Source: Glandiceps talaboti (taxonomy: Eukaryota > Hemichordata > Enteropneusta > Spengelidae). Taken from it: a stretch of 64,000 nt of DNA. The stretch lies in contig NC_135561.1 in the NCBI RefSeq assembly GCF_964340395.1, positions 21,087,740 to 21,151,739 on the forward strand, written 5' to 3'. The notes beneath the pieces were generated by a model, which saw nothing but the letters and a program-made list of their open reading frames with translations, had not been told where the DNA came from and searched no databases. Position numbers and translations under genes: made by a program. Below are positions 22,850-60,671 of this stretch, one piece after another. Numbering within the stretch: the stretch's first letter is position 1; the number at the start of each line of letters is the position of its first letter.

Positions 22850-22929
22850 GCGCCGTGACATGGAGGATTTTTCCCCCACTGCTGTTGGTGGAAGTTGGAC
22901 GTGTATTTACATCTACAAACATCCAAACG
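22850..22929 (+). promoter_or_regulatory. Candidate non-coding first exon, copy B
   Basis: Duplicate of copy A, with donor CAAACG|GTTAGT. Either copy could start transcription of the downstream gene, and both could serve as alternative promoters. Confidence 0.4.
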
Positions 22930-23530: not shown

Positions 23531-24729
23531 CGTTTCGATCACAGTCTCAAGTTCACCGTCGCGTCGTGTAACAACTGCAGTCAGTTTGTTCATACAGTTC
23601 AGTCTCAAATTTTCTGACCTTTGCTAGATTTTGACCAAAATATCGTATATGTGGCAAGTTACAAGGTTAAACCCTCGCACACCAAAAATGTTGCTCGGTT
23701 CATAATATCGCGCCGGACTCAAATATATTTGAATTTCATCCCTATATATGGCTAATCTTCAAATCAGATATTGTCACATGACATAAAACAATAATTTCAC
23801 AACTTACAGTATTGTTTTCAGAGGTTGTGCATAAGTTTTGGCGACGTTAAAGTTTGTGTTAGAAATGTCTCAGGACACTTCATATTTTGTGTCTAAGATG
23901 TACATTGTTTGATATTGGATGACACAACTCAAGTAACTGCTATTGCAATTTACTCTATCTGTCACAGAGTGTGACACACTATGACTGCATCCATATATTG
24001 GCATACTGTATCAATTTTGGTTTCAACATGCTGGCTGACCATCAACCAGGTTTTACTTGCATCATGCCTTGATACATGAACTGATGTAATTGCTTGACAA
24101 ACTACATAGTGGTGCAAAAAGACTTTCATAGACATGCAGATTCCTATACATCTACAATTTATATTCCTATACACCTGATTGGCAGACAGAGCCACAATGT
24201 GTTGTAATGTTTAGATTTGGTCAACCATAACTCAAATCTTGTTTTTATTGAATGCTGTCAAAAACATCTGAGAGACTGAGATGGCATGTACACTACAATT
24301 TGATATGTCAGCTGTTATCTGTTTAAATTTATCTGTATGGTAATAGCATGTCCCACCCTTTCAAAATTTTGGCATATTTTGAAATCAGTGTTGGTAAAGT
24401 GAAGTACAAACTTGAATTTTTGCTTTAAGCCAGTCATCTGCTAAGTTTCTACATTTAGTAGGCTTCCGCCTTTTGATTTCCCAGTCAAAAAGTTGTCAAA
24501 GCTTGGGGGTCATTGCAGTTCAGTCATGGAAAATCCTGTTCTATCAACACTATCTTAGAATGAAAGCCTATCAGCTTCATGAGGCAAACTTAATTTGATT
24601 GGACAATCATTGAACATATGCTGGTCAATATAGAAGCTTAGATTGCAGAGTTCTTTTAATAGTTGAGATTATTGATATTAATGATTTCCTCTCTCTTTTC
24701 CATGATCTGTCACTAGTATCAGAGCAGAA
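23531..24729. other. Intron between candidate first exons and exon 1
   Basis: AT-rich; no domain, repeat array or RNA gene was recognised. Confidence 0.45.
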
Positions 24730-24753
24730 ATGTCTGTCAAGTCATTTATAATG
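24730..24753 (+). CDS. Exon 1 (start): MSVKSFIM
   Basis: ATG at 24730 follows acceptor ctgtcactag at 24716. The donor is AATG|GTAAGT, phase 0. I chose this start because it is the first ATG of a spliced exon and the next exon has no in-frame ATG before the domain. It is short, so less certain than the downstream exons. Confidence 0.55.
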
Positions 24754-27700
24754 GTAAGTAGTTTTCTCTTAGTGATTGTGAAACATTTACAATTTGCAAC
24801 AACTTTCCTGCCAAAATTTTTCCAACAAAGTTCTTGTTAATTTGTATTATTTGGACATATATCAACTTTATTTTAGACTGGAATGAAAGAAATGTTATTT
24901 ACTAATGAAGAGTCTTACACGTACATTTGCGAAAAACATTCATGAATTAAAGTTAATTCTGTGTATAATTTGTCTGTAGTAACAAAAGGAATACAGTATA
25001 TGATTATTTTCTCTTTGTTGTCCTGTAAATCATTGGTATTTTTATAGTACACCTTGGTGTACATTAGGCTCAAGTATCAAGCTTGTAAACACAACCTATG
25101 TATTAGATACATTGTTGTGTATAAGTGACTGGTCGATACACAATCAACTGTTTTCCCAACTCATATCAGCTATATGACAAGAATTTCCATTCTGGTTCAT
25201 GTCTAACGGTTTAAGAGGGATAATCAACTGTAACTTTGTCTCCACCCTTTTGGTCCCCATAGTGTGTGGAAAAAAGGTCAGATAGATACCTAAATAAATG
25301 TATGTGATGTGTGTACAATCTCATTCTGCACAAATTATATAAGTATGTGACTAAATGCAGCACCAGTCAGACAAAAATGGGATACTCTGTTATGTTTTTC
25401 AAATATCTTAATTTCACAGTGTAATTCATGTACTTTTAAAAATAATTCACAGACAAGGCAGAGGAGAGGGTCTCCTGCAATCTCTCCCAGAGAAGTAGCA
25501 AAGAAATGTGTTACAGAAGGTATTGATATACCTAAGGAAGGCCGGTTTGAGATACGCTTTATCAACAGTTTTAAAGGTGAGACAACTGTAAACTTTTTAA
25601 ATTAATGAAAGAACCAAAAAATATGGGAGCATAGGAGGTGTGTTTCTGCCATATGTACTTACATGTGAGCATTACTTCAGAGTTTACATATCTGTATAAC
25701 CAGATTCAGAAGTATACTGTTTACATAAATTTGTATTAAATGTATGTTAAAGGTTGGCGGTCGTCTAATGCGCATGTGTGAGTTTTCGCAATGTTCGAGT
25801 GTTTACAAACAAGTTGAATTGTTCCCTCTCCAGTCTGCAATGAGGTGTCCTTCAGCATTCAAAGTTTCTGTCAGTGTTATAAACCATTTCCCATTTCGTC
25901 TGTTGCACATCTGAGGGACCCACCGCCACACATGTGCTACAGATGACCACCAACATTTAAGATGATGTACAAGATGTACACTATGTTAAATAGTATGAAA
26001 GGACTTTTCTCATTTTAGTAAATTATTGAACTTCCATGGAAAGGAACAGTCTCTGACATACTATTGAATACATTGTCCATCAGTTGCCCTTGTATGCATC
26101 CTGCACTTTTCTCTGTATTAAAGTGTTTTTACTAATATTTTATTTGAATGATTGGGATTTGGAGTGGTAAATAAATTATTATTATTTTGTATTATCTTCA
26201 TGCAGTGGTGTTTAAAGTCATCATATGTAATACGGATCCCCCTTCCTACCCCTACCCCACCCCCATGACAATACATGTCAAGTTAGGGATCATTATGCAG
26301 TGTCATGTTATAATGTAGAGATTGAAACTGTGGGAGCCTTCAGTAATTGCAAGGAGGGGCAGAGCAAATCACCCTTGGTTTGTCACAACCACTGACCCCT
26401 CCCAAAATTCTCCACTTTTAAAACCTGACCCTCTCCTTGTTTCCTTTAGTTAAAAATGACCCCCCCCCCCCCCTCCCCAAGCCACTGCATGGGTACAAGA
26501 TTTACAGCTACTGAATATCTTTTCATGAAATGTTAGTGACCAAATTGTTCTGATTTTTGATTTTTGTGTGTGTGGGGGGGGGGGGGGGGGGGGGCACAAA
26601 AAAACCCTAAATGGAATGTCGAGATGAACAAGTGCCAGATATGTAAAATAAAATATATATAAGCAAAATGGTACACATTCTTGACTTTGTGCACAATAAC
26701 CTTCAGAAGGTTTGTTAGCATTATGGCTCGATGACAAAGCAGTGCAGTTATTATTAGTTCCTGTCGTACATAGTCCGGGACGGGGATTTATAGATTGGGC
26801 TCTGTGTGTCCGTGCATCCGGAGTCATTTCTCAGACATAACTGAACCGATTTCTCTCAAACTTGGCACAAGGACAACACACTATGGGGAGCATATATGCA
26901 TGTGATTTTCTTTTGAAAATGATTACATCAGAGATGGAGATTTTGGGTCAAAAAATGTGATTTTTGGTTTTAAAAAAAGCTTAACTCCAAAACTACTGGG
27001 TAGATTGGCATGACATTTGGTGGGAACATTCTTAGGGGTGAGGGTATTGGGATTTATTTATGACATGATGAGATTTCCCCAATAATATGCAAAATAGGGC
27101 TAAAAATGTGTCTTTTTGGTCAAAAATGTATAATTCCAAAACTACTCATCATATTATGACTGAAATTTGGGTGGAACATTCTTCAGGGGGTTAATACTAA
27201 GAGTTGTTCATGGTATGATGGTCCCATCAGTGATATGCAAATTATGGCTAAAAATGTGTCTTTTTGGTAAAAAATCTACAATTCCAAAACCACTGAACAG
27301 ATTGGACTGAAATTTAATGGGCATGCATCTAGGGATGTATGGACGAAGAAATAGTAAGCATACAACGATACCATTAGTGATATGCAAATTAGGTGTGAAA
27401 ATGTTCATTTTTGGTAAAAACTTACATCTCCAAAAGTACTTGGTCAGTAAGTCTTAGTCTGAAACTTGGCGAGATATTTCTGAAAGTGTTATTCTGCAGA
27501 TTTTCTTCAAATAATTTGGCAAAATTGGCCCTAGCAACCATGAGACACCCTTAGCAACAAACAAATGGCAGTATATTTTGGTCAAATAATAACATCATCT
27601 GGTGGGCAATTCAATAAACATTCAAAAAATGTATGCAAATACCATATCAACCATGGCCACACCCATAGCAACAGCCAAACATTGCTGTATTTCACAAAGA

Positions 27701-30700
27701 TAATGGGGATTCTTAGACAAGTGAACAATCATTCCAAAAGTGTATGCAAATATGCCTAGCAACCATGACCACGGCCTTAGCAGCAAGAAAACGGGAGTAC
27801 ATTCTTGTCAAATAATGCTTTCTTTTGTGATGCAGTCTAAGATGGTTACCAGGCAGCCATTTTGTTATGATCATAATACATGTACAAAGTTATTACACAG
27901 CAACAGCCAAACATTGCTGTATTTCACAAAGATAATGGGGATTCTTAGACAAGTGAACAATCATTCCAAAAGTGTATGCAAATATGCCTAGCAACCATGA
28001 CCACAGCCTTAGCAGCAAGAAAACGGGAGTACATTCTTGTCAAATAATGCTTTCTTTTGTGATGCAGTCTAAGATGGTTACCAGGCAGCCATTTTGTTAT
28101 GATCATAATACATGTACAAAGTTATTACACAGATACAGCAGCTATCGTGTTACAAAAACTCATGTTGGAACCCAATTGGTAGACATGAATTACCAGTAGC
28201 ATGTCATTTGTCAATTTGTGATTGCACCTATCCCAGATGAAAACTGATACAATCAAAACGGTAACCAACACCACCACAAGAGTGGGGACTGTGTTATCTA
28301 TGATGACTTGTTCACTTAAATCTTTTCCATAGGTAGTGGATAGAACACATAAGTTGACAAGCTTATTATATTTCCTAAAAATCCAGCAGAAACCTACTGC
28401 AATGATCATGATCAAAGTCTGACTAGAGACCATCTGACTTAGCGAGCTAGGCACTGTGCTGAAAGATGCTCTAAAGTCAAACTCAATCATACAAATTTCA
28501 CTTCCTAACTGACAATAAAGGGAACCGGAGTCCAAAATTTAAGGAACAAATTATTGATAAATTTATGATTTTATCAAAACTACAATGACTTGTATAAAAG
28601 TTAAAACAATAAGGGGTCATACCAAACAATGCCCAGTGCACTGAAGGACAGGTAGATGCAAAATCCACAATTTGGTGTATTGTACAGAAGTAAAGGCAAG
28701 ATCAACCACAACTCAATTTTGCCCATGTACCTGCCCCTCAGCCCGTCAGTTTAGTACATTCTCTTGGAATATTCCAGAAGGGTTTATTTTGCATAGAGAT
28801 AATATGAATACTATAATACAGGAAGGGTCTTAATCCTTATCTTATGTGTCTTATATAGCACATAATGATGTGATCAATCACTGCAAATTACTCCTAAAGT
28901 TATGGATTTGTTGACACAGAGAAAGTTTTCCCAACAGTGCAATTTTGCATTTATTTTTCAATCCCACGATTCATAAGTGACATATATATTTACTTGTTCA
29001 GCTAATTAAATATGTCAGTAATGGCATGAAAAAAAGATAATGAAAATTGTAGCCAAACAAGCATTCTGTTCTATTCTGTCAGCCCATTTAACTTTGTGTT
29101 AATTGGTGATTTTATGAATGTACACGGTCAACAACTTTGTGCACAGGTAGAACTCTGTAGTAATTAATATGGAATACGTTTACAGCAACTGTTGGCTTTT
29201 CTATCATATGTGTTGTTGTATCTGTGTTTCATCTGTGTATGTATCTGTGGGGTGCAGGGGGTCTAAGAAAAAAAAGAAATCATAGGGGTGCCAGATAATT
29301 TATATAAGGTTTAGTGGGGGGGGGGGGGCAAATAAAAAAAACATCGCTTGATTAGAAATCCCCCCCCCCCCCCCACCACGAATTAAACAACACAATTAAT
29401 GTACACTCCCTAAGTGGTACACTGGTTCAGATGTCATGAGGCCATATAATCTCTGGAGCCAATGTTTGACAGATATGTATGGGCAGATAGCATTCAGTTA
29501 GCATCATAATGTCAATTGTCAATTTGTAATATTACATCCATTCCATACAAGAAGTAGTACCATTTAAATGGGACTGAACACTTCCCCAATGGGATGTTAC
29601 ATGTATGATTACTTGTTCATATCATGATGTGTAATGCTGTCATTATTAAAATGGTCCTTCAATTTACTAGTCTGATCTATAATATGGTTCTTCTCTACAG
29701 GCAAAGGTGTGTTTGCGGCAAAAGAGTATACAAAAGGGGACTATTTAATGTGGTACGAAGGTGAAAGACTTTCCGGAAAAGAGGCATCTGAAAAGGAAAA
29801 TGAATATGATGAAACAGGAGATGGGTCTTATATTTTCTTTTTTAAAGACAAGGGTAAACCTGTGGCGTAAGTAGGGATATTCTTTTATTGTTTTTAAGAG
29901 TCTCTTAATTTGTCTGTGCTCTCATTTTTTAGCACAACTGAACTGGTTCAGTACCCTAGTGCTATAGGCATTACAAAGTATGTCTGTCTGTGTGTATGTA
30001 TGTGTGTAAACAACTTAAAGTCAAAAAACTGTGGGACCGATTGCTTTGATATTTGGTGGTTATGTTACCTGTGGTGTATAGTTGAGAAATTGTTCAAATG
30101 AAAATGATCACATCAACAAACTTAAATTCCAAAACTACCGGGTAGATTGGCCTGAAATTTGGTGGGAACATGCTTAGGGGTGAGTAAATGAAGATATGTT
30201 CATGACATAATAATTTCCCCCAAAATATGCAAATTAGGTCTATAAATGTGTCTTTTTGGTCAGTAATGTATAATTCCAAAACCACTCAGCAGATTAGCCT
30301 GAAATTTGGGTGGAACATTCTTCATGGTGTTTATCCTGAGAAATATCCATGATATAATGGTCCCATCAGTGACATGCAAATTAGGTGGATAAATGTTAAT
30401 TTTTGGTCAAAAATGTATCTCTAAATAGTAGTGGGTCAATTAGGGACCGGTCAGAATTTACGGCAGGGGGGGGGGGGCTGGGGAGAAATTATTTTGGTCC
30501 AAAAAAATTTTGCAGCCCCCCTTCGCGCTCTCAAAAAATTTCATGGCCCCCTAAATGAACCCATATAACTTTTAATTCAGAGATAATTTGGCAGACATAC
30601 GCTTTCTTGGCTATTGACTGCCTCATAATTAAACGAGAAAGAGTGAGAGAGATACAGAGAGACAGAGAGAGAGACAGATACAGAGACAGAGAGAGACAGA

Positions 30701-33700
30701 TACAGAGACAGAGACAGACAGAGAGAGAGAGAGACAGACAAACAGACAGACAGACAGATAGACAGCGACATGTAGTCAGAGACCGAGACCGTGAGAGACA
30801 GAAGTGACAGAGACTGAGACAAGAGAGAAATATATATACATACAGACAGATAGCGACAGAAAGACAGAAGAAGACAAACACAAATACATTCGCCTGGCTG
30901 TCACAAACTCATCATTGAATATAGGTATTAGAGGTTATTGCGGCAAAGCCGCAATAAATTTTTAAATTTACATGGTAAACGACGCTACTGAGGTTTAATT
31001 TGGTACATATTATGAGCAAAATATTTCATGGCCCCCCCTCTTTCAGACCATCGGAATTTTCATGGGCCCCCCCTTCAAGGATCCCATTTTTTTCATGCCC
31101 CCCCCCCCCCCCAATTTCTCCCCAGCCCCCCCCCCCCCCCCCCCTGCCGTAAATACTGACCGGTCCCTTATACTGAAACTTGGTGAGATGTTTCTGAAGT
31201 GTTTTTGTACAAAGTTTCTTCAAAACTTATGACAAAATTGGCCCTAGCAACCATGACCACGCCCTTAGCATCAACCAAATTGCAGTATATTTCAGCGAAA
31301 TAACAATATCATCTGGTAGGCAAGTGAGTAAACATTCAAAAAAAATATGCAAATACCCTAGCAACCATGACCACGCCCATGGCAGGGATCACTTTGGGGC
31401 GCGATAACGTCAAAATGGACATGTCGCGTCCAGAAAACTCAATTGGGAAAAAAAATTGCACTGTCGACACTAACAGTGCCTCAGTGATAAACGCGATCTA
31501 AAAACAATCCTCTAAAATAAAAGCTTTTGTATAGTGACTAAATACAAGTGATTTCTAAGTACCAGTAGTTCAAACGACTATTCAAACTGATCTGATCAAA
31601 TTTGCCGTATTGTTTTCAATATGAATAAATGCGTAAACCCGCTAATGCTAGTAATGGAATGCATGATAGTAATACTAATAGTTACCGGTGTGATTCGCAC
31701 TATGGTATAAACTTCCAGTAAATCAATGGCAAAACCACCGTGAAAAAGAGTTTACCTGACTAATATACCTTTTGAAAAAGTGATGATGTTATCTCTGATT
31801 ATCGGTTTCATATTCAATTTTACTCTGAAAATATCGTTTAGTTTGTAGTTTTTCGTTGTCTGATCGTCGACTCGCAACATCACACGACGAATGCATGGAT
31901 ACTAAATATGACAGCCATTACGTCATATACTATAGCGAATTTTCAGTAAGTCTCGTGTATCATGAGTTTTCGGACTACACGATGTGTAGCTAGCCTACAT
32001 ACAAATATTTGGTGTTTCAAAAGTCTGATTTATCTTTGGACATTTAGCTTTTCTAAGAAAAATAATTAAAAAACTCGTTTTAAAAATCAATAACTGAACT
32101 TGTGATTTTGTTATTGGTTTCAACTCGTTTTTATTTCTTTACCAAGTTATGTATAGTCCAAGTTATTTTATAAGTCACAATATGTCGGGGGTCAGACTAG
32201 ACTAACTGTTGCTATTTCTCGATCCCCATTTTAATACTCATCTCATTTATTTGGTTATTTTTGTTACAATGGTTTTGTAATCATTTAATATATGTTTGAA
32301 TAAATAAAACAATTATTAAGTTAATCACAGCATGCCTTTACATGTAGGAAGCTGGAATGACATCTATAAACTACTTCCAGTACCAACAAATTTTATGCAT
32401 ATCGTTATGCAAATGATATGTAAATATATATGCAAATTAGCCACCTGCCATATTTTGACTTCCGTCCCACACAGTTTTCAAATTCTCTCACTCGTTTTCT
32501 TCATATGGGATTTTATCTCATGCAGTTCTTGCGCCAGGGTAATACCTGCCATGGCAACAGCCAAATGGCAGTGTATTTCACAAAGTTAACAACAGGGATT
32601 CTTAGATACATGTACATGTAATTGAATAAATATTTAAAAAAAATATGTAAATATGCATAGCAACAAGGCCATGCCCATAGCAACAGCCAAATGATTGTGA
32701 TTCATATATAACAACAGGGATCAATAGATAAACGAATAAACATTTAAAAGGAATGTAAATATACCTAGGAACACGACCACGCCCATAGTAACATGCAAAT
32801 GACCACATATACTACAAAGCTGACATTGGGGGTTCAAAGACGAGTGAACGAACAACAAAAAGTGTATGCAAATATATCCAGCAACATGACCGTGTGAATA
32901 GCAAATATTGCAAAGATAACAACAGGGTTGGATACGCAACTAGATATGCATTCAGCAAATTAGTACTTAATATACTTAGCATGGATAATATGGGTTATCA
33001 TTTTTATAAACTGTAAAGTTGTGCTACAATGCCATTGGCGGTATTTTTGTATTTTCCTGTCATATCTCGATATCGGTGAATGTAGGCGCTAGATGTTACA
33101 GATGATGAGACAGGGTAGTTGGGGAATATGTGTACTTCAATCAGTAGCCATGATCAGAATGATAGAGTATATGATCAAATACAGATTCTGACAAGTATTA
33201 ATTACTATAAAGTTATCTGCTTGCATAATGTGATGGCACTGTTCATACAGCAATGGTACGGATATGTGACTGCTTTTTCTTTCAAACCTTGTATGCAGGT
33301 ACATAATATACCATATACAGTGTCTTGCATATACTTGTCGATTTGATGCAATATTTTAGGCAGTCATAATGTTTTAAACTTTACATTCCCTTATCAGCCA
33401 TATAACTAAGTAGTTCCAGAATGCCTCTGCATGTACCATATATATTCTGAAATTTTTGTTTTCTCAGAGATTCCACTTCCCAAATTTGATGTTATTTTGA
33501 TGAAGTTTTACACAAAGACTGTATATATGTACACCATGGTTTACATTTTTAGTTCAAGTACTTCCAAAACATGATCTAAACCCAACCCCCCTTCTGCCAG
33601 CTGATACCTGTAAATAAATGATTACCAGCAGGGACTGTATGATATCCTGATTCTTCCATTGTAGGTGATCTGCGAATGAAATGGTAACCTGAAAGGTAAA

Positions 33701-48700: not shown

Positions 48701-51700
48701 TTACAGTTGTGTTGAATGAAAATGAACTAGGTGAAGCTTCTCAACAGGAAAGCATGACTGAGAATGACCCACCAGTGCTGATGGACAACAATTATGCAAA
48801 GCCACATGCATGTAAGTTATATCAGTTCAGTCGTTATTTTTCTACATTAAAGCTCAGTGGTTATCTGTTATGCAGTTTGCCAGTTTTCCACATGTTTAAA
48901 ACAAGTATATAACTTATAATCAGCAACTTAACAATTTCTCTCTCTCCATTGTTCATTCTGTCTCATTTTTTCCACTTGCATGCTGCAGATATTTGAGGTA
49001 GATATTTTGGTCCATTTTAGTTCATCCCAAGATTCTACATTTGAAACCAACATTATGGTGGTAGTCCAATCTGTTACATTCATTGTACTGTGTCCACAAC
49101 CATGGTAGTTTTGACAAATACAACCCCTGTGTAGCGTGTGGTAGTTTTGACAAATACAACCACTGTGTAGCGTGTGATAGTTTTAACAAATACAACCACT
49201 GTGTAGTGTGTGATAGTTTTAACAAATACAACCACTGTGTAGTATGTGGTAGTTTTAACAAATACAACCACTGGGATGTGTAGTGTGTGATAGTTTTGAC
49301 AAATACAACCACTGTGTAGTGTGTGGTAGTTTTGACAAATACAACCACTGTGTAGCGTGTGATAGTTTTAACAAATACAACCACTGTGTAGTGTGTGATA
49401 GTTTTAACAAATACAACCACTGTGTAGTGTGTGATAGTTTTAACAAATACAACCACTGTGTAGCGTGTGATAGTTTTAACAAATACAACCATTGTGTAGC
49501 GTGTGGTAGTTTTGACAAATACAACCACTGTGTAGTGTGTGGTAGTTTTAACAAATACAACCGGTGTAGCGTGCGTTAGTTTTGACAAATACAACCACTG
49601 TGTAGTGTGTGGTAGTTTTGACAAATGCAACCACTGTGTAGCGTGTGATAGTTTTGACAAATACAACCACTGTGTAGTGTGTGGTAGTTTTAACAAATAC
49701 AACCGGTGTAGCATGTGGTAGTTTTGACAAATACAACCACTGTGTAGCGTGTTGTAGTTTTGACATATACAACCACTGTGTAGCGTGTGATAGTTTTGAC
49801 AAATACAACCACTGTGTAGTGTGTGGTAGTTTTAACAAATAAAACCGGTGTAGCGTGTGGTAGTTTTGACAAATACAACCACTGTGTAGCGTGTGGTAGT
49901 TTTGACAAATACAACCACTGTGTAGTGTGATAGTTTTGACAAATACAACCACTGTGTAGCGTGTGGTAGTTTTGACAAATACAACCACTGTGTAGCATGT
50001 GGTAGTTTTGACAAATACAACCACTGTGTAGTGTGTGGTAGTTTTGACAAATACAACCACTGTGTAGTGTGTGGTAGTTTTGACAAATAAAGCCACTGTG
50101 TAGCGTGTGGTAGTTTTGACAAATACAACCACTGTGTAGCGTGTGATAGTTTTGACAAATACAACCACTGTGTAGTGTGTGGTAGTTTTAACAAATACAA
50201 CTGGTGTAGCATGTGGTAGTTTTGACAAATACAACCACTGTAGTGTGTGGTAGTTTTGACAAATACAACCACTGTGTAGTGTATGATAGTTTTAACAAAT
50301 ACAACCACTGTGTAGTGTGTGATAGTTTTAACAAATGCAACCACTGTGGTAGTGTATGGTAGTTTTGACAAATAAAGCCACTGTGTAGCGTGTGGTAGTT
50401 TTGACAAATACAACCACTGTGTAGTGTGTGATAGTTTTGACAAATATAACCATTGTGTAGTGTATGGTCGTTTTAACAAATACAACCGGTGTAGCGTGTG
50501 GTAGTTTTGACAAATACAACCACTGTGTAGTGTGTGATAGTTTTGACAAATACAACCATTGTGTAGTGTATGGTAGTTTTAACAAATACAACCGGTGTAG
50601 CGTGTGGTAGTTTTGACAAATACAACCACTGTAGTGTGTGATAGTTTTGACAAATACAACCACTGTAGTGTGTGGTAGTTTTGACAAATACAATCACTGT
50701 AGTGTGTGGTAGTTTTGACAATTACAACCACTGTGTAGTGTGTGGTAGTTTTAACAAATACAACCACTGTGTAGTGTGTGGTAGTTTTGACAATTACAAC
50801 CACTGTGTAGTGTGTGGTAGTTTTAACAAATACAACCACTGTGTAGTGTGTGATAGTTTTGACAAATACAACCATTGTGTAGTGTATGGTAGTTTTAACA
50901 AATACAACCACTGTGTAGTGTGTGGTAGTTTTGAGAAATACAACCACTGTGTAGTGTGTGGTAGTTTTGACAAATACAACCACTGTGTAGTGTGTGGTAG
51001 TTTTGACAAATACAACCACTGTGTAGTGTGTGGTAGTTTTAACAAATACAACCACTGTAGTGTGTGATAGTTTTGACAAATACAACCACTGTGTAGTGTG
51101 TGATAGTTTTGACAAATACAACCACTGTGTAGTGTGTGGTAGTTTTGACAAATACAACCACTGTGTAGTGTGTGGTAGTTTTGACAATTACAACCACTGT
51201 GTAGTGTGTGGTAGTTTTAACAAATACAACCACTGTGTAGCGTGTGGTAGTTTTGACAAATACAACCACTGTGTAGTGTGTGGTAGTTTTAACAAATACA
51301 ACCACTGTGTAGCGTGTGATAGTTTTGACAAATACAATCACTGTGTAGTGTGTGGTAGTTTTAACAAATACAACCAGTGTAGCATGTGGTAGTTTTGACA
51401 AATACAACCACTGTGTAGCGTGTGGTAGTTTTGACATACAACCACTGTGTAGCGTGTGATAGTTTTGACAAATACAACCACTGTGTAGTGTGTGGTAGTT
51501 TTAACAAATACAACCGGTGTAGCATGTGGTAGTTTTGACAAATACAACCACTGTGTAGTGTGTGGTAGTTTTGACAAATACAACAACTGTGTAGTGTGTG
51601 ATAGTTTTGACAAATACAACCACTGTGTAGTGTGGTAGTTTTGACAAATACAACCACTGTGTAGTGTGTGGTAGTTTTGACAAATACAACCACTGTGTAT

Positions 51701-54700
51701 TGTGTGATAGTTTTGACAAATACAACCACTGTGTAGTGTGTGGTAGTTTTAACAAATACAACCGGTGTAGCGTGTGGTAGTTTTGACAAATACAACCACT
51801 GTGTAGTGTGTGATAGTTTTGACAAATAAAGCCACTGTGTAGTGTGTGATAGTTTTGACAAATACAACCACTGTGTAGCGTGTGGTAGTTTTGACAAATA
51901 CAACCACTGTGTAGTGTGATAGTTTTGACAAATACAACCACTGTGTAGCGTGTGGTAGTTTTGACAAATACAACCACTGTGTAGCATGTGGTAGTTTTGA
52001 CAAATACAACCACTGTGTAGTGTGTGGTAGTTTTGACAAATACAACCACTGTGTAGTGTGTGGTAGTTTTGACAAATAAAGCCACTGTGTAGCGTGTGGT
52101 AGTTTTGACAAATACAACCACTGTGTAGCGTGTGATTGTTTTGACAAATACAACCACTGTGTAGTGTGTGGTAGTTTTATCAAATACAACCGGTGTAGTG
52201 TGTGGTAGTTTTGACAAATACAACCACTGTGTAGTGTGTGGTAGTTTTGACAAATACAACCACTGTGTAGTGTGTGGTAGTTTTGACAAATACAACCACT
52301 GTGTAGTGTGTGGTAGTTTTGACAAATACAACCACTGTGTAGTGTATGATAGTTTTAACAAATACAACCACTGTGTAGTGTGTGATAGTTTTAACAAATG
52401 CAACCACTGTGCTAGTGTATGGTAGTTTTGACAAATAAAGCCACTGTGTAGCGTGTGGTAGTTTTGACAAATACAACCACTGTGTAGTGTGTGATAGTTT
52501 TGACAAATATAACCATTGTGTAGTGTATGGTCGTTTTAACAAATACAACCGGTGTAGCGTGTGGTAGTTTTGACAAATACAACCACTGTGTAGTGTGTGA
52601 TAGTTTTGACAAATACAACCATTGTGTAGTGTATGGTAGTTTTAACAAATACAACCGGTGTAGCGTGTGGTAGTTTTGACAAATACAACCACTGTGTAGT
52701 GTGTGATAGTTTTGACAAATACAACCACTGTGTAGTGTGTGGTAGTTTTGACAAATACAACCACTGTGTAGTGTGTGGTAGATTTGACAATTACAACCAC
52801 TGTGTAGTGTGTGGTAGTTTTAACAAATACAACCACTGTGTAGTGTGTGGTAGTTTTGACAATTACAACCACTGTGTAGTGTGTGGTAGTTTTAACAAAT
52901 ACAACCACTGTGTAGTGTGTGATCGTTTTGACAAATACAACCACTGTGTAGTGTGTGATAGTTTTGACAAATACAACCACTGTGTAGTGTGTGGTAGTTT
53001 TGACAAATACAACCACTGTGTAGTGTGTGGTAGTTTTGACAAATACAACCACTGTGTAGTGTGTGGTAGTTTTGACAAATACAACCACTGTGTAGTGTGT
53101 GGTAGTTTTAACAAATACAACCACTGTGTAGTGTGTGATAGTTTTGACAAATACAACCACTGTGTAGTGTGTGGTAGTTTTGACAAATACAACCACTGTG
53201 TAGTGTGTGGTAGTTTTGACAATTACAACCACTGTGTAGTGTGTGGTAGTTTTAACAAATACAACCACTGTGTAGTGTGTGGTAGTTTTGACAATTACAA
53301 CCACTGTGTAGTGTGTGGTAGTTTTAACAAATACAACCACTGTGTAGTGTGTGATAGTTTTGACAAATACAACCACTGTGTAGTGTGTGATAGTTTTGAC
53401 AAATACAACCACTGTGTAGTGTGTGGTAGTTTTGACAAATACAACCACTGTGTAGTGTGTGGTAGTTTTGACAAATACAACCACTGTGTAGTGTGTGGTA
53501 GTTTTAACAAATACAACCACTGTGTAGTGTGTGGTAGTTTTAACAAATACAACCACTGTGTAGTGTGTGATAGTTTTGACAAATACAACCACTGTGTAGT
53601 GTGTGATAGTTTTGACAAATACAACCACTGTGTAGTGTGTGATAGTTTTGACAAATACAACCACTGTGTATGTGTGATAGTTTTAACAAATACAACCACT
53701 GTGTAGTATGTGGTAGTTTTGAACAATACAACCACTGTGTAGTGTGTGATAGTTTTGAACAATACAACCACTGTGTAGTGTGTGGTAGTTTTGACAAATA
53801 CAACCACTGTGTAGTGTGTGATAGTTTTGAACAATACAACCACTGTGTAGTATGTGGTAGTTTTGACAAATACAACCACTGTGTGTGTGGTAGTTTTGAA
53901 CAATACAACCACTGTGTAGTGTGTGATAGTTTTGACAAATACAACCACTGTGTAGTGTGTGGTAGTTTTGAACAATACAACCACTGTGTAGTATGTGGTA
54001 GTTTTGACAAATACAACCACTGTGTGTGTGGTAGTTTTGACAAATACAACCACTGTGTAGTGTGTGATAGTTTTGAACAATACAACCACTGTGTAGTATG
54101 TGGTAGTTTTGAACAATACAACCACTGTGTAGTGTGTGGTAGTTTTGAACAATACAACCACTGTGTAGTATGTGGTAGTTTTGACAAATACAACCACTGT
54201 GTAGTGTGTGATAGTTTTGAACAATACAACCACTGTGTAGTATGTGGTAGTTTGGAACAATACAACCACTGTGTAGTATGTGGTAGTTTTGAACAATACA
54301 ACCACTGTGTAGTACTACAAAATGTTTCTCTTTGGGCTACCAAATGATGCAAGTGGTAGTCCAATGTACTGGGGCTACTGGGTACAAAATTATATTCCTG
54401 TGTCCACAAACTACAAATAATTTTCTTTGGGCTACCAAATGAAGCAAGTGATAGTCCGGTCTGTTAGATACATTCATACCATGATAATTTAGATTAGAGT
54501 AGCCCATTTTGCTATCAAAATAATGAAAAATTGAGCCCTGATGTTTCTTGCTATAATTGGTAGTATATCCATCACACTGAGAAAACAGTTGTGCAAATTA
54601 TAAATGGGGTGTTTTTAAAAAAATATAATTTTGGAAATATTGCATTTGGCTTTTGATATCGATACTTAGGTACTACTTAGTAAGTTTATTCTATGCAAAT

Positions 54701-57700
54701 AAAGTTGGTGTGTTCATTTATATGCAAATTGGGCAGTTTAAATATGAAAAATCTAGGAAAATGCCATAGTGTCACTTGACAGATTAAAGTTTGTGGAATT
54801 CAGAAATGATTTCACCAATTGAGGTTACAGATTGTTCGCCTAAAATTTGTGTTTTTTGTCAAAAATTTATATTTTGAGATATATTAGTGTTAATGAATAA
54901 TTTGCATAATTAATGAGTTTCAGTAATTAGGCTATATCTTAAGACTGCATACTTCAATTCCAATACCATTCGTTCATGAATACATTAACCATAACAAATT
55001 GTCTGTGTCCTATAAAGTTTGTTGATGTACCTAACATGTTAATAAATAATTTTTATAATTAATGAGTCTTGGTAATTAGGCTATAACTTTAGACTGCATA
55101 CAATAAATTAGTACATACGTTAAACGTAACAGAGTGCACATCATGTGACATGTACTATAAAAGCTGTTGATTCCACCTAAAGAGCAAGTGAACAATTCAC
55201 ATAATTATTGTCGATACTTGGGCTGTGTCCAAAAAAGTTCATTACAATATTTTTTCATACAGTTTCAATGGGTAATTTGCGTAATTAGTGATTCCCTTAC
55301 GGAAGGCATTCAGTTTAAATCTGGTTTTCATTACGTTTAATGAGGAGAGGATAATTCTAATGACAATAGGTTTTAGAACTGAAGTTTGGGCATAAGATTA
55401 TATATTTATATTCCGAGGCTCATTCTACCTTGATAGATAATACAGTAATTGTACAATAACATGACACCTCTCTATCATTACCTTACTGACTGGTAGAAAT
55501 TCTAGTTCTGTTTAACCCCTTCAGGACTAGAAACTTTCCCGCCAAACTTTTTGAACAAAAATTCTTGTTTCTCTGTAATTTTCAGACATGTATCAACTTT
55601 ATATTGGATCAAAATTCAAGATATATTACTTCCTACTAAAGTAATATTCTTAAATTTCCCAAAATGTTCATGAAAATCAAGTTTTCGTATTATTTCATAT
55701 TTCTTTAGGAATGGAAGGGTTAAACATTCAATCAAGGCTTTGATATATATATTGCTTCCTTTTTTGAGGAGCAAAAGGATCAAAACTTAAACGTTTCTAG
55801 TGTACGTGGTGTCTAATGCTATCAATGCACGAAGGACCTTCAAATGTGATTGAATTCATGTCTAATGTGATGTCAGCTACAGATACAGCCAAAACCAATG
55901 GCTTTTTATTGATATAATAGTCATTCAATATTAAGAAAATGTTTTATGTTTTTTTAGGTGGTTATATTTACAACAGGCATCATCAAGGAAGGCAGCTAGA
56001 GGAGGAAAACCCTTGGTGTCTCTGTATAATCATTTTTGTTGTGTTGAATTTCCTGACTTTGCTTCTTTTATCATTATTTTTCTTCTAATTTTTTTCACTA
56101 GCTTTGTTTTCAACTTTATTTTACAAAATTTTACATCTAAACCATTCTCACTTGATGACTTTAAATTTAATTGTTACCAGATGAAACAAAAAGGTATCTT
56201 AACATGTTGATAGGTGAGCCTTCAATTAGACCATTGTTTTCCCCTGATATATTTCCCATCACTTTATATCTTATGATAGTTACAGAAAGAGTAGTTCCAA
56301 GTGCAAAAAATATACCTTTGATTACATGCATTGTTTGGGTTTATGTGCTGTATTTAAAGATAGAAGTTTATACTGATTGACTATTTTACATGTCAAACTT
56401 GCAGTCAGCAAGGAAGTAAGTAAGTACAGCTATTTCCACAGAGTTAATATTAAATTCTGGCCATATGGTTGTCATTTTGCTGTAAATTTTACACAGTTCA
56501 GTTATTGTGTACCGATACAACTGCATCTCTCTGAAAGGTTGTGTGTGTGGTCATAAATTGAACAAAATTTGTAAAATTATATACTTCATAACAGAACATT
56601 GGCCATCCAAGCACTATGTCTGTCTACAGATTTTAATAACGATTGGTGTATAACTTTGGGTAGATAAATGTTTGTAGAGTATAAGTGATAATGTGAAGTC
56701 GTTTGAATGTAAGGCCAAAAATTTGACTTTTGATGAAAAATGTATATTTTGTGCATTTATTCATTGTTGCTAGCACTGTGTTATATTAAAATTAGGCATT
56801 CATGCCTATACTGTTTTTGACAATGTTTTTAAAACCCTGATACATGTTATGTACAAATGTACTGTACTTGTTTGGGACAGACCTCATAAGTAGCTGAGTG
56901 CCTGCTATCTACACTAAATATAAATTCTGCTTTTCATAGGGAGCAACTCACAATGACAATCGGAAAGAACTATAAAATCTGAATTTTGTTAAAAAAACAT
57001 AGCCTTAATCAAGAATTTGGAGGTAATTGCACAATCTTCCTCAGCTGTCATTCTGAGTTGATCCCAAATTTTTATGAACTAGACTGCAGAATTTACACTA
57101 TATGGGTGGGTATATTTACACTCAGTTTAAACTTGTTTCCATCAATTAGACCTTCCCTTGTTTTTGTACCTATCCTGGAAAGGTAATTTAAACCAATAAC
57201 AATTCACCTATACATGTCAATGTCCTTGGTGAGTTCCGGTCATTTGGTACATAAATTGACAGAGTCATTACACTCAAAATGTATTTCGTAGTGTCTTTTA
57301 GGAGGCATATTAATGTCATAACAATGAAGTTATTATAAAAAGAAGCCATTCACAGTGGCCTGTTTTCTTGCTACTTGAAGGAAATTCTGCTAAAAGTACC
57401 GGTAGAAGATATTGAATCTCCCCCCCCCCCTCCCCCCTAATTATCAAGATTTTGTTTTCAGAAGTAAGGATCTTTAATTGTTTTGCATACTGGTTGGTCC
57501 ATCTGTCCTTTTTATGATATGTTTCTCTTCTATTTTCAGTTGCTACTAGACAATTCAACATTAGAAAACCTAAACAAAACAGAAAGTGGACCCCTGAAGA
57601 AGAAGATGCTATACATAGATCTTTGGAGAAAAATTATGCAGAAAGAAGAGTACCGTTGAAAGATGAGTGCTTGCGAGCAATTGAACTTGAACCCTCTCTT

Positions 57701-57778
57701 AGTGGGCGCTCATGGCGCATTATTAAAGATCATGTTCGAAATTGGCTGGTCAAAAATGAAGAAACTCAATACCACTGA
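24730..57778 (+). CDS. SET - kinase - tyrosine recombinase - SANT fusion gene (12 coding exons)
   Basis: Exons 24730-24753, 25453-25576, 29701-29866, 33786-33978, 34222-34336, 41373-41410, 42101-42575, 43160-43332, 43799-44062, 45341-48206, 48707-48811 and 57540-57778 all join in phase. They give 4,782 nt, a 1,593-residue protein ending at TGA 57776-57778. Domains: SET (about 36-165), Cys cluster (185-201), IRE1-like kinase (about 240-515), acidic disordered linker (525-920), two zinc-finger-like motifs (927-945, 1011-1030), tyrosine recombinase (about 1270-1450) and Myb/SANT-like (about 1525-1585). Tyrosine recombinases of this kind belong to Crypton-type DNA transposons and genes derived from them. 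Inferred role: a chromatin- or DNA-associated protein; substrate unknown. Alternatives: two or more adjacent genes, or splice variants. The SET-to-kinase and kinase-to-recombinase joins rest on phase only. Confidence 0.75.
25453..25576 (+). CDS. Exon 2: basic N-terminus and SET start
   Basis: The acceptor is attcacag|ACAAGG, phase 0. It encodes a basic lead (TRQRRGSPAISPREVAKKCV) and the start of the SET fold (GRFEIRFINSFKG). The donor AAAG|GTGAGA leaves phase 1. Confidence 0.8.
26450..26600. repeat. Poly-C and poly-G runs flanking a short fragment
   Basis: A C-run at 26461-26473 and a G-run at 26573-26594 surround about 100 bp. Such C/G runs mark the Harbinger-like elements elsewhere, so this may be an eroded relative. 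No inverted termini were found. Confidence 0.45.
26830..27668. repeat. Dispersed intronic repeat family, large copy
   Basis: Tandem degenerate units of about 110 bp with 'AATTCCAAAACTACT...AGATTGG..TGAAATTTGG(T/G)GGGAACATTCTTAGGGGTG...ATGACATGATG...CCCATCAGTGATATGCAAATTAGG...AAAATGTGTCTTTTTGGT'. The same family occurs at 4.8-5.3, 30.1-30.4, 31.2, 32.4-32.9 and 42.7 kb. Confidence 0.75.
27669..28132. repeat. Exact 232-bp tandem duplication
   Basis: The block starting CAACAGCCAAACATTGCTGT at 27669 is repeated at 27901 with almost no differences through TGTACAAAGTTATTACACAG. It is a recent duplication inside the dispersed repeat. Confidence 0.9.
28125..28535 (-). CDS. Unrecognised 136-residue reading frame with two hydrophobic segments
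   Basis: I do not recognise it. Two stretches (SSQTLIMIIAVGFCWIF and TLVVVLVTVLIVSVFIWD) could be membrane spans. It lies antisense inside an intron of the large gene, and I found no clear splice partners. It may be chance or a decayed membrane-protein gene. Confidence 0.2.
   Translation of the reverse strand: MDSGSLYCQLGSEICMIEFDFRASFSTVPSSLSQMVSSQTLIMIIAVGFCWIFRKYNKLVNLCVLSTTYGKDLSEQVIIDNTVPTLVVVLVTVLIVSVFIWDRCNHKLTNDMLLVIHVYQLGSNMSFCNTIAAVSV
28536..29700. other. Intron remainder before exon 3
   Basis: No gene is seen. G-run 29316-29328 and C-run 29361-29374 bound a short segment, like the eroded element at 26.5 kb. Confidence 0.45.
29701..29866 (+). CDS. Exon 3: SET domain core, first half
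   Basis: The acceptor is ttctctacag|GCAAAGG, phase 1. The sequence GKGVFAAKEYTKGDYLMWYE fits the opening G.G..A...f..GdfvveY.G strand pattern of KMT5A-like SET domains. The donor GTGGC|GTAAGT leaves phase 2. Confidence 0.88.
30090..30442. repeat. Dispersed repeat family copy, left part
   Basis: Units 'AAACTTAAATTCCAAAACTACCGGGTAGATTGG' and 'TCCCATCAGTGACATGCAAATTAGG' match the 26.8-kb copy. The copy is interrupted by the element at 30443 and resumes at 31168. Confidence 0.75.
30443..31167. mobile_element. Non-autonomous Harbinger-like element (MITE), copy 2, 725 bp
   Basis: The termini GGGACCGGTCAGAATTTACG and CGTAAATACTGACCGGTCCC are inverted repeats of about 20 bp. They are followed inside by G/C runs and a shared GGGGAGAAATT / AATTTCTCCCC pair. 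The flanks are TTA on both sides (30440-30442, 31168-31170), the 3-bp target duplication typical of PIF/Harbinger. The element interrupts a dispersed repeat. Inside lies a GAGA/GACA-rich stretch (30640-30870). It encodes no protein. Confidence 0.8.
31171..31390. repeat. Dispersed repeat family copy, right part
   Basis: It begins ACTGAAACTTGGTGAGATGT, which continues the unit cut by the MITE, and passes to CCTAGCAACCATGACCACGCCC units. Confidence 0.75.
31391..32335. other. Intronic, nothing recognised
   Basis: No coding block, array or element was identified. Confidence 0.4.
32336..32960. repeat. Dispersed repeat family, further degenerate units
   Basis: Repeated 'GCAAATATNCCTAGCAACANGACCACGCCCATAGCAACAGCCAAATG...AACAACAGGGATTC(T/A)TAGA' at ~110-bp spacing. 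Confidence 0.7.
33786..33978 (+). CDS. Exon 4: SET domain core, second half
   Basis: The acceptor is attttcag|TATTGA, phase 2. It encodes IDATRIETIAKYVNDDHVKP and later LFAIRDIAVNEEILYNYGEG, matching the R.iNHS...PN and R.I..geEl.ydYG motifs. The NHS His is replaced (Asn119-Asp120-Asp121). The catalytic-side Tyr of the YNYG motif is present (Tyr157, Tyr159). The donor AAAG|GTATAT leaves phase 0. Confidence 0.88.
34222..34336 (+). CDS. Exon 5: Cys-rich (zinc-binding-like) segment
   Basis: The acceptor is attttag|TGTTCA, phase 0. It encodes RLRCNFCDKECTDEGEKEIC, with Cys185, 188, 192 and 201 and His205 near the end, suggesting a small treble-clef-like zinc site. The donor CAAG|GTATGT leaves phase 1. 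Confidence 0.75.
34890..35483. repeat. Tandem array of 'GATACCTTGAAGTCATCCA' unit, left half
   Basis: Degenerate units of about 60-70 bp contain TTGGATACCTTGAAGTCATC, CAGTTCAAACTACATGCAAT and TGCATAGATCTGACTTTATC. The array is cut at 35483 and resumes at 40275. Confidence 0.88.
36417..36640 (-). pseudogene. Acidic reading-frame fragment within the element
   Basis: On the - strand the text MTDYSETENSDIGEADHMRP precedes a short Cys-containing tail and a stop. An overlapping frame upstream (DLSDGVDDGYDNPEYD) is similarly acidic, as if a frameshift separates them. I do not recognise the family. It could be the N-terminal relic of an element-encoded protein. Confidence 0.22.
37358..39149 (+). CDS. 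Candidate small nested gene inside the 4.79-kb element (3 exons, 109 aa)
   Basis: Exons 37358-37453, 38657-38869 and 39129-39149 join in phase 0. The start is ATGGCGGCCATG in a locally GC-richer stretch with CpGs (37270-37400). The product begins MAAMIHKGKENRFRQLIMRR, has a Lys-rich middle ending AKRLAKLYGNFKKDEGTGLL and ends EPMDID. I recognise no domain. The acceptor of the middle exon (ACTTTAG) is weak. It may be a captured host-gene fragment, an element gene, or an artefact. Confidence 0.28.
38078..38155. repeat. (GTAT)n(GT)n(TA)n microsatellite inside the element
   Basis: GTAT units, then GTGTGT, TATATA and GTAT again. Confidence 0.95.
40275..40512. repeat. Tandem array of 'GATACCTTGAAGTCATCCA' unit, right half
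   Basis: Continuation of the array at 34890-35483, with the same CCAGTTCAAACT and CTTGGATACCTTGAAGTCAT motifs. Confidence 0.88.
40513..41372. other. Intron remainder before exon 6
   Basis: A short imperfect cluster of GTACAGTAC-type words (40550-40640) and nothing else recognised. Confidence 0.4.
41373..41410 (+). CDS. Exon 6: micro-exon GYHILPSGPYPVK
   Basis: 38 nt, phase 1 in and phase 0 out, with acceptor ttttattag|GTTATC and donor GAAG|GTAAGT. Only this reading links exon 5 to the kinase exon without a stop; exon 5 joined straight to exon 7 would be out of phase. Confidence 0.68.
42101..42575 (+). CDS. Exon 7: protein kinase N-lobe and catalytic loop
   Basis: The acceptor is ttattgcag|GGTGGA, phase 0. 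It encodes a weak Gly loop (AAGRAKVFLGLYKNEHAVAIK, with the VAIK Lys at 272) and the catalytic loop HRDIKPENLLI (Asp370, Lys372, Asn375). The donor ATAG|GTGAGT leaves phase 1. Confidence 0.9.
42640..42790. repeat. Dispersed repeat family head segment
   Basis: 'ATAGATTGGGCTCTGTCCGT' then 'GTCATTTCTCAGACATGACTGAACTGATTC' and 'AAACTTGACACAAGAACAA' match 26790-26885 and, more weakly, 43500-43620. It is apparently the conserved left end of the family. Confidence 0.7.
43160..43332 (+). CDS. Exon 8: kinase activation segment
   Basis: The acceptor is tctctgtag|ATATTT, phase 1. It encodes LNISDFGISKRL (Asp388 of DFG), then GTCAWMASE in place of the GT.GWIAPE motif of IRE1, and STDIQ before the intron. 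The donor CCAG|GTAATA leaves phase 0. Confidence 0.88.
43799..44062 (+). CDS. Exon 9: kinase C-lobe
   Basis: The acceptor is tctgtcag|GTTGCT, phase 0. VAGCVLYYIMTRGHHPFQS closely follows the IRE1/RNase L pattern SAGCVFYY(V/I)...G.HPFG. The later LIDKMLAADPKERPLSGECL closes the domain. No KEN ribonuclease domain follows. The donor AGTG|GTGAGT leaves phase 0. Confidence 0.88.
44063..45340. other. Intron between kinase and exon 10
   Basis: A G-run of ~24 bases (44503-44526) is followed by GTGTGCGAGG...GACAATTGC(C/A)CCC, with a partial inverse at 45170-45210 (GGGGGCAGTTGTCC). Degenerate units 'AAGTACGTGAATTACGGCGGTAAGTTAA' recur at about 44820, 44930 and 45060. The opposing GGGGGCA/TGCCCCC ends suggest another small inverted-end element (about 44500-45210). 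Confidence 0.4.
45341..48206 (+). CDS. Exon 10: acidic linker, zinc-finger-like motifs and tyrosine recombinase
   Basis: A 2,866-nt exon with acceptor ctttttcag|AACACT (phase 0) and donor AGATG|GTAAGC (phase 1). The first ~390 residues are acidic, with two duplicated motifs (ECVTMDSN twice, DPDYHP twice). Zinc-like motif 1 has Cys927, Cys930, His940 and His945. Motif 2 has Cys1011, Cys1014, His1026 and Cys1030. The recombinase shows RRREGE (Arg1281-1283, the first catalytic Arg), Lys1332 in PGKRGR, Arg1406 in TNLRKH, His1432 in FLGH and Tyr1440/1441 in HREYYRLP. The His of the usual HxxR motif is Thr here (TNLR). A read-through of the donor would stop at 48251. Confidence 0.92.
48707..48811 (+). 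CDS. Exon 11: short acidic exon
   Basis: 105 nt, phase 1 in and out, with acceptor cttatttacag|TTGTG and donor GCAT|GTAAGT. It encodes VLNENELGEASQQESMTEND and a short end. There is no domain; it is a linker between recombinase and SANT. Confidence 0.7.
49100..54318. repeat. 5.2-kb array of a 36-bp unit, ~145 copies
   Basis: The unit is GGTAGTTTTGACAAATACAA followed by CCACTGTGTAGTGTGT. Because 36 is a multiple of three, long frames stay open and encode a 12-mer such as CGSFDKYNHCVV. These frames are artefacts of the repeat. Unit variants are GA(C/A)AAATAC, AACAATAC (confined to 53700-54310), CAATTAC and ACCGGTGTAG. Blocks around 49.7-50.6 and 51.7-52.7 kb carry the same order of variants (AATAAAGCC, ACCGGTGTAG), about 2 kb apart, so a large segment was duplicated. 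The array lies in the intron between exons 11 and 12. Confidence 0.96.
54319..54890. other. Array edge and unique intron
   Basis: Two copies of TCTTTGGGCTACCAAATGA(T/A)GCAAGTG(G/A)TAGTCC (54329, 54423) flank the array end. This motif's TAGTCCAATCTGTTACATTC version also sits at the left edge (49060), so the array expanded inside a pre-existing sequence. Confidence 0.6.
54890..55310. repeat. TTTGCATAATTA family repeats
   Basis: Three units of ~120-140 bp with AATTTGCATAATTAATGAGT and GTAATTAGGCTATATCTTAA match the repeats at 6.4 and 11.2 kb. Confidence 0.75.
55311..57539. other. Intron remainder before exon 12
   Basis: No convincing exon. A C-run (57421-57436) precedes the last exon. Short in-phase stretches at 55956 and 56182 were considered and left out. 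Confidence 0.45.
57540..57778 (+). CDS. Exon 12 (terminal): Myb/SANT-like DNA-binding domain
   Basis: The acceptor is tctattttcag|TTGCTA and the phase is 1. It encodes NRKWTPEEEDAIHRSLEKNY, then VPLKDECLRAIELEP and GRSWRIIKDHVRNWLV, a three-helix Myb/SANT-like pattern with spaced Trp residues, and ends at TGA 57776-57778. It lies 8.7 kb from exon 11, across a satellite array. Phase and domain logic support the join, but a separate gene is possible. Confidence 0.72.
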
Positions 57779-58191
57779 ATTTTCCAGTTTTGTACCTTGG
57801 ATATTCCGAAACTGGGCTGTTACTACTAGTTTTGCTAAAATACTGACCATTCACTTTCATGGATCCGGAGTCCTATTAATTCCTATTAATTAACTCATAT
57901 GACAAGTAGTATAATGTCTAGCTGGAGACTACAGTCTTCTAGTGTGTGATATTTTACAACATGTCTAGGTTTTGACTACAGTCTTCTTGTGAGTGACATT
58001 TTAGTACTGTATATGTTTTTGTTTGAATCATGATTTCACTTGCATTGGATCATATTTTTGCTTTGGTCTTCAGTGTGCTATAGTATTGGTATACTCAGAT
58101 ACTTTTATGTGATGTTGACTGAAAGTTATTTATTACACCTTTCTTACATTACTGTTGTCACATTTAGTGTTCAGTTTGTGGGTTTATGATC

Positions 58192-58197
58192 AATAAA
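58192..58197 (+). terminator. Polyadenylation signal AATAAA
   Basis: AATAAA lies about 415 bp after the stop of the SANT exon, in GATCAATAAAAAACG. It is the first clear signal downstream and is a plausible end of the gene. Confidence 0.5.
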
Positions 58198-58534
58198 AAA
58201 CGTTACAATTCAGAGTGGCATTAACCAAGAAAGAGTGTCTTTGGTACTCATTGATTGGATGTGTGTGTAATATTGCATATTGCAATTATAGTGAATGAGT
58301 TGAAATGTCAGGTAATATAAATCGTAGTTTTTTCAAAAACCAGGTTTGAATTATTGAATATACACATATTTATATAATTTGTAAGTATTATGTGTGTGCG
58401 TGTGAACATGTCCCACTGTACAAGACTGTGTCATCATTTGCATAATGTATTATTGGTTAATTAGACCTGACATTACCAATTTAATGCAAATAAACAATAA
58501 ATCCCTTCCCGGAACACTATACATATGTATGTAT

Positions 58535-59290: not shown

Positions 59291-59327
59291 CTATAAAGAG
59301 TTAAATACATACACACATATATGTATT

Positions 59328-59368
<41 letters not shown>
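59328..59368. repeat. (TA)n microsatellite
   Basis: About 20 TA units at the junction of the minisatellite and the LINE fragment. Confidence 0.95.
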
Positions 59369-59369
<1 letters not shown>

Positions 59370-59370
<1 letters not shown>

Positions 59371-59885: not shown

Positions 59886-59889
59886 CTAT

Positions 59890-60670: not shown

Positions 60671-60671
60671 C

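What the first reader, a model, noticed from the sequence alone, without database searches (positions are those of the whole stretch)
24730..57778. One gene appears to fuse a histone-methyltransferase-type SET domain, an IRE1-like kinase, a transposon tyrosine recombinase and a SANT domain
Seen: twelve exons on one strand with canonical splice sites whose phases chain exactly (0-1-2-0-1-0-1-0-0-1-1) into 1,593 codons with one stop. Known: SET, protein kinase, Crypton-type recombinase and Myb/SANT are separate families, and recombinase-derived host genes exist. Inferred: a single polypeptide pairs two signalling or modifying enzymes with a DNA-recognition module of transposon origin. I do not know a named protein with this full order.
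Basis: partly seen in the sequence, partly recalled or inferred. Interest (0 to 1): 0.93.

Follow-up and report, generated by a model that had tools for sequence, protein, structure and literature searches.

The report
Giant acorn-worm transposon with methyltransferase, kinase
The odd fused gene is real, but it is the gene of a roughly 39-kb jumping element present in nine nearly identical copies in the acorn worm genome, whose DNA-recombining protein also carries a histone-methyltransferase-like domain and a protein kinase.

The parts
21526..60674 (+). whole mobile element, 39,149 bp in this copy; TATG abuts it on both sides
21448..21525 (.). left flanking TGTA/TATG microsatellite (insertion target)
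60675..61077 (.). right flanking (TATG)n microsatellite with variant units (insertion target)
21544..21553 (+). outer subterminal site AGGTGGCTCC, left
21576..21586 (+). inner subterminal site TTGGTGGAACC, left
60611..60621 (-). inner subterminal site, right (inverted copy of TTGGTGGAACC)
60649..60658 (-). outer subterminal site, right (AGGTGGACCC read inwards)
24730..24753 (+). exon 1, start codon
25453..25576 (+). exon 2, N-terminal part leading into SET
29701..29866 (+). exon 3, SET
33786..33978 (+). exon 4, SET with ND motif and YNYG
34222..34336 (+). exon 5, Cys/His-rich linker (by eye)
41373..41410 (+). exon 6, linker with GPYPVK; similar linker in P0111
42101..42575 (+). exon 7, IRE1-like kinase (VAIK, HRD)
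43160..43332 (+). exon 8, kinase (DFG)
43799..44062 (+). exon 9, kinase C-lobe
45341..48206 (+). exon 10: acidic linker, zinc-finger-like segment and tyrosine recombinase (modelled part 46946-48205)
48707..48811 (+). exon 11, linker
57540..57778 (+). exon 12, three-helix homeodomain/Myb-like domain and stop
35484..40274 (.). nested insertion inside intron 5 with CCCTTACC-type inverted ends, absent from three other copies
49103..54313 (.). 36-bp tandem array (146 units) in intron 11, length differs between copies

Best explanation
21526-60674 is a recently mobile giant DNA transposon of the tyrosine recombinase (YR) kind, with one intron-rich gene. SHOWN: nine near-identical dispersed copies; sharp ends; TATG microsatellite at every end read; unrelated DNA beyond in the flanks compared; inverted subterminal sites; YR fold with R, K, R, H, Y kept; SET exon, kinase exon and YR exon at all nine places. 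INFERRED: the protein binds the paired GGTGG-type subterminal sites (through YR, zinc-finger segment or the C-terminal three-helix domain), excises the element as a circle joined through one TATG, and recombines that TATG with one in a host (TATG)n repeat, leaving TATG on both sides. INFERRED: the KMT5A-like SET methylates a lysine (histone or the protein itself) to keep the element or its target usable, and the IRE1-like kinase acts as a switch on the same polypeptide or on host silencing proteins.
Against: No circle, excision event, empty site or transcript was seen. Two of nine copies could not be read at one or both ends (C5 left, C11a both; N runs). That the element brings part of the TATG repeat with it is not fully excluded. 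The His of HxxR is Thr in 38 of 40 and the SET NH is ND, so catalysis of either is unproven. One of nine copies (C11a) has a frameshift in exon 10. Nonsynonymous:synonymous codon changes against three copies are 8:7, 9:9 and 9:6, not independent, against 2.5-3.4:1 expected without selection: suggestive but few, and purifying selection would also fit a host gene. SET modules may also be swapped: the SET of P. flava P0112, which has BRCT and no kinase, is 71% identical to the window's, more than the matched SET-kinase stretches of the kinase-bearing P. flava proteins, 57% and 51%.
Confidence: 0.85

Rival explanations
1. A domesticated host gene: a Crypton-like recombinase recruited long ago into a chromatin/signalling protein, later copied by segmental duplication.
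For: Twelve exons over 33 kb; same order in a second acorn worm; fewer amino acid changes among copies than expected without selection.
Against: Nine copies whose readable ends are identical and all abut TATG repeats at the same phase, with unrelated flanks where compared; YR active site kept, whereas DUF3504 proteins lost it (PMC3212892, passages).
Confidence: 0.07
2. A mis-joined model: separate SET, kinase and recombinase genes that lie side by side inside one mobile element.
For: No RNA was examined; intron 5 is 7 kb and intron 11 is 8.7 kb; P. flava also has predictions with only part of the order (P0110 SET-kinase; P0002, whose start matches the kinase C-end and runs to the last domain).
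Against: Phases chain exactly; splice sites kept in three copies; P0111 has the whole order in one prediction; 45 of 119 recombinase proteins fetched also match SET, isoforms included. All these are predictions.
Confidence: 0.08
3. A decayed endogenous large DNA virus that inserts into simple repeats by a tyrosine recombinase, like endogenous nimaviruses.
For: Telomere-repeat insertion with YR and intron-bearing host-like genes occur in endogenous nimaviruses (PMC10871703, passages).
Against: Frames of 120 or more residues in 21.5-60.7 kb are exons 7 and 10, tandem or low-complexity arrays, and frames under 160 residues, of which the five tested have no Pfam match; copies are nearly identical, not decayed. 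Shorter frames were not scanned.
Confidence: 0.02

Closest known systems
Crypton DNA transposons (Kojima and Jurka 2011, PMC3212892, passages seen)
   Same: YR-encoding DNA element; short direct repeat (here TATG) at both ends as in fungal Cryptons with 4-6 bp repeats; most CryptonS share TATGG termini; circular intermediate proposed.
   Different: Size 35-46 kb; 12 exons; SET, kinase and C-terminal three-helix domain; microsatellite targeting; the passages say that animal Cryptons have no C-terminal domain and no terminal repeats; HxxR His is Thr here; no DUF3504 (PF12012) among the families matched at E 0.01 by 40 aligned sequences.
Starship giant transposons of fungi (search listing only)
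   Same: Giant eukaryotic element with a tyrosine recombinase.
   Different: Starships carry many cargo genes; here one gene fuses the extra enzymes to the recombinase. Relationship of the recombinases was not tested.
SET-carrying HarbingerS and MuDR transposons of oomycetes (cited in PMC12730594, passage)
   Same: Transposons that encode a SET histone methyltransferase.
   Different: Other transposon classes (DDE type, from my own knowledge) and other hosts.
Endogenous nimaviruses (PMC10871703, passages)
   Same: YR-associated insertion into simple repeats; some host-like genes with introns.
   Different: Those are large viral genomes with many genes; no viral gene was noted here.
KMT5A/SETD8 and IRE1
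   Same: Closest solved relatives by sequence of the SET (1.2e-19) and kinase (6.4e-27).
   Different: SET motif ND in place of NH; kinase without a KEN match and without the luminal part (from the domain order).
SET-recombinase proteins of fish, frog, coral and clam (uncharacterised predictions)
   Same: N-terminal SET and YR, often with the zinc-finger-like segment and the same C-terminal domain.
   Different: No kinase match; one clam protein has BRCT after SET instead (P0051).

Membership tests
Tyrosine recombinase superfamily | YR catalytic fold | tested here: met
Tyrosine recombinase superfamily | catalytic R, K, R, H, Y | tested here: met
   40/40, 39/40, 40/40, 40/40, 40/40 in the window piece and 39 chosen relatives
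Crypton | R-H-R-Y tetrad with His in HxxR | tested here: not met
   Thr in 38 of 40 at the His position, by motif spacing; R, R and Y are kept
Crypton | short terminal direct repeat as recombination core | tested here: met
   TATG abuts both ends, but it lies in a microsatellite, so its length is not defined
Crypton | YR groups with Crypton groups in a tree | not tested
   no Crypton reference proteins were at hand
Crypton-derived host gene (DUF3504) | loss of the YR active site | tested here: not met
   active site kept
Crypton-derived host gene (DUF3504) | single locus conserved in position | tested here: not met
   nine dispersed copies
KMT5A-like SET methyltransferases | SET domain closest to KMT5A | tested here: met
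   among solved structures
KMT5A-like SET methyltransferases | NH motif | tested here: not met
   ND in 15 of 17 proteins printed, this one included; NH in P0111; no pattern match in P0062
KMT5A-like SET methyltransferases | H4K20 methylation | not testable with these tools
   needs an assay
IRE1/RNase L | kinase closest to IRE1 with VAIK, HRD, DFG | tested here: met
IRE1/RNase L | KEN ribonuclease domain | tested here: not met
   no PF06479 among families reported up to E 1 for the window protein or up to 0.01 for P0110 and P0111
SANT/Myb | three-helix fold | tested here: met
   model pLDDT 84.2, helices 18-34 (broken at 28), 40-49, 58-76
SANT/Myb | closer to SANT/Myb than to homeodomains | tested here: inconclusive

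The most novel reading that the evidence does not exclude
A self-licensing transposon: one polypeptide that finds the element's ends, recombines them into microsatellites, writes a lysine methyl mark at the donor or target chromatin through its SET domain, and gates the reaction by phosphorylation through its own kinase. That would be a recombinase, chromatin writer and signalling switch in one mobile-element protein, in a SET-recombinase lineage spread through corals, molluscs, acorn worms, fishes and frogs.
Probability: 0.3. Interest if true: 0.93.

Novelty: new variant of a known kind. Interest (0 to 1): 0.82.

Why it matters
The passages I saw describe animal Cryptons as YR elements without C-terminal domain or terminal repeats (PMC3212892). 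This one is 35-46 kb, split by introns, sits in a microsatellite at every end read, and carries a chromatin-modifier-like and a kinase domain on the recombinase itself. If the SET domain works, it gives a direct test of whether animal transposons encode their own histone writers to avoid or use silencing, as discussed for epigenetic enzymes in fungal and oomycete transposons (PMC12730594, passages). It also warns that KMT5A-like and IRE1-like 'genes' in animal annotations can be transposon genes.

Tried and rejected
Rejected: domesticated host gene (copies, ends, active site); chance exon chaining (RefSeq model, kept splice sites, P. flava); segmental duplication (shared sharp ends in TATG repeats with unrelated flanks). 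Led nowhere: Pfam on the recombinase piece of the window (0 hits; 4 of 40 aligned sequences hit Phage_integrase) and profile searches of solved structures with whole-length alignments (no recombinase among the hits shown; they come from other columns, among them SET in 71). Paper searches on SET with Crypton or tyrosine recombinase, KMT5A-like, Glandiceps, giant transposons and hemichordates showed no SET- or kinase-bearing YR transposon in the titles, abstract starts and passages that I saw; lists were capped, and bioRxiv and most subscription papers are not held. The viral structure library was not searched. A tree against Cryptons was not made. The protein search scored only the 7,998 candidates sharing most words, and one search listed 120 of 972, so absence of the kinase elsewhere is not shown.

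Full report
What was claimed. The exon chain is exactly as described: 12 exons, GT-AG introns, phases 0-1-2-0-1-0-1-0-0-1-1, 1,593 residues and one stop.

Whose DNA it is. The protein search named the source: P0001, an uncharacterised RefSeq protein of the acorn worm Glandiceps talaboti (1607 aa, LOC144433636), with 10 substitutions and one 14-residue stretch against the window model. The held genome G000 (590 Mb, 47 contigs) contains the window at C14:21087740-21151739. P0001 is on a contig of 29,028,597 bases, the length of G000 C5, so the RefSeq gene is a different copy.

What it is. A SET scan of the genome first showed the window's SET exon at eight other places, several with the same score and even the same stop pattern in the adjoining intron. 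The recombinase exon DNA has nine matches at about 100% on eight contigs (C14, C17, C11 twice, C6, C5, C4, C18, C9), one at 68% over half the query on C15, and three short ones at 70%. Three copies fetched at length match the window across introns, with several insertions and deletions: C4 and C9 from 21,448 to beyond 60.7 kb, C11a from 22,969 to 58,649. Noncoding differences to the window are 124 of 22,833, 121 of 22,838 and 81 of 19,210 aligned bases, arrays masked; coding differences are 15, 18 and 15 of 4,782. All 12 exons and splice sites are present in all three; insertions were ignored in that count. The exon 10 frame is open in 8 of 9 copies; in C11a it is split by a frameshift.

The ends. 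The left junction reads TATG|TTTGGACATCGCAATG in the window, C4 and C9 and in C17, C11b, C6 and C18, 7 of 7 read. C5 and C11a run into N there. The right junction reads AAGCTCG|TATG in 8 of 8 read; C11a is N. The left-end DNA has 9 matches, 8 at known copies (C5 from base 106 of the query on) and one on contig C27, which I did not read. Beyond the repeats, distal left flanks of the five copies compared (window, C4, C9, C6, C18) share no 15-mers, and TATG runs of four or more units cover only 0.152% of 81,493 host bases. In C17 the microsatellite carries a TATTAATG interruption on both sides. The simplest reading is insertion into existing (TATG)n repeats, always at the same phase. Inverted sites sit at equal depth: AGGTGGCTCC and TTGGTGGAACC at offsets 19 and 51 on the left, AGGTGGACCC and TTGGTGGAACC at 16 and 53 on the right; each 11-mer orientation occurs once in the window. 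Spans between the end queries are 34,874 to 45,591 bases in eight copies, that of C5 with its left end extrapolated by 105 bases. Lengths differ partly through a 36-bp array in intron 11 and through nested insertions.

Relatives. Of 228 proteins fetched, 119 match the recombinase; 45 of these also match SET, 46 the last domain, 15 both, and two the kinase, P0001 and Ptychodera flava P0111, isoforms counted separately. Some had been fetched with the SET-kinase query, so these are not unbiased shares. P0111 (2049 aa) has SET, the short linker, kinase, zinc-finger segment, recombinase and last domain in that order. P0110 has SET and kinase at 57% to the window protein, and the start of P0002 matches the kinase C-end (33% over 110 columns, E 8.7e-6) and goes on to the last domain. 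In one search (972 proteins at E up to 0.001, 120 listed) only P0001, P0110 and P0111 carry both SET and kinase. SET and recombinase distances of 17 proteins correlate, r 0.83, none of 5000 permutations as high, so the two mostly travelled together. Against a strict reading, the SET of P. flava P0112, followed by BRCT domains and no kinase, is 71% identical to the window's, so modules may be exchanged. Shad (Alosa) has five such loci on five contigs, 90.3-98.8% alike; a cichlid two loci at 94%; Acropora millepora two at 99% on one contig length.

In the same genome. The recombinase protein finds 49 matches. Besides the nine, four with near-equal scores (C8, C6, C11 twice) each have a SET match 7.2-7.3 kb upstream on the same strand, and three more (C22, C4, C11) have one 15-19 kb upstream. 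Kinase exon 7 is 100% identical in protein in all nine copies and has one further match at 39%, on C14, in the neighbourhood of recombinase-like hits. So SET-recombinase units form several families here, and the kinase marks this one and perhaps one diverged relative; kinase search counts are lower bounds.

How it most likely works. The protein recognises the paired subterminal sites, cuts and joins at TATG, releases a circle, and integrates it into a TATG repeat. This is inferred from the ends and the recombinase fold, by analogy with the circle model proposed for Cryptons (PMC3212892, passages). The SET and kinase roles are inferred from family knowledge only. Simple repeats as targets have a precedent in endogenous nimaviruses with YR enzymes (PMC10871703, passages). 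SET enzymes inside transposons have a precedent in oomycete HarbingerS and MuDR (PMC12730594, passage).

Novelty. I found no description of a YR transposon with SET or kinase, of which I saw listings and, for four papers (PMC3212892, PMC6431247, PMC10871703, PMC12730594), passages. I file it as a new variant of a known kind, a YR DNA transposon that works like a Crypton, without filing it as a Crypton, because the HxxR His is not met and no tree was made.

Limits. No transcript, no activity, no excision product, no population data. End counts omit unread copies. Genome match counts are lower bounds by the tool's own statement.

Noticed in passing
window 35484-40274: Nested 4.8-kb insertion in intron 5 with CCCTTACC-type inverted ends, absent from C4, C9 and C11a; it looks like another DNA transposon.
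   Followed up: partly
window 49103-54313: 36-bp tandem array of about 146 units in intron 11, about 14 kb in the C4 copy against 5.2 kb here.
   Followed up: partly
G000 C8:11568975, C6:13754472, C11:3739457, C11:17034828: Second SET-recombinase family: four units with near-equal scores and SET 7.2-7.3 kb upstream.
   Followed up: partly
G000 SET matches of the 108-residue frame: A further SET exon occurs in about a dozen places with the same score (C1, C4, C6, C13, C15, C17, C20, C21, C23), probably another mobile family.
   Followed up: no
G000 C14:19961184 with C14:19942404 and C14:19993180: Diverged kinase (39%) within some 20-30 kb of recombinase-like matches, perhaps a relative of P. 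flava P0111.
   Followed up: no
P0051 and P0112: A clam SET-recombinase protein and an acorn worm SET protein carry BRCT domains after SET, where this element has the kinase, so that slot may take different modules.
   Followed up: partly
window 18225-18647 minus strand: Immunoglobulin domain exon, probably of a host gene (PF13927, 3.7e-15).
   Followed up: no
G000 C27:13558-14018: A further left end on contig C27, possibly the missing end of the C11a copy.
   Followed up: no
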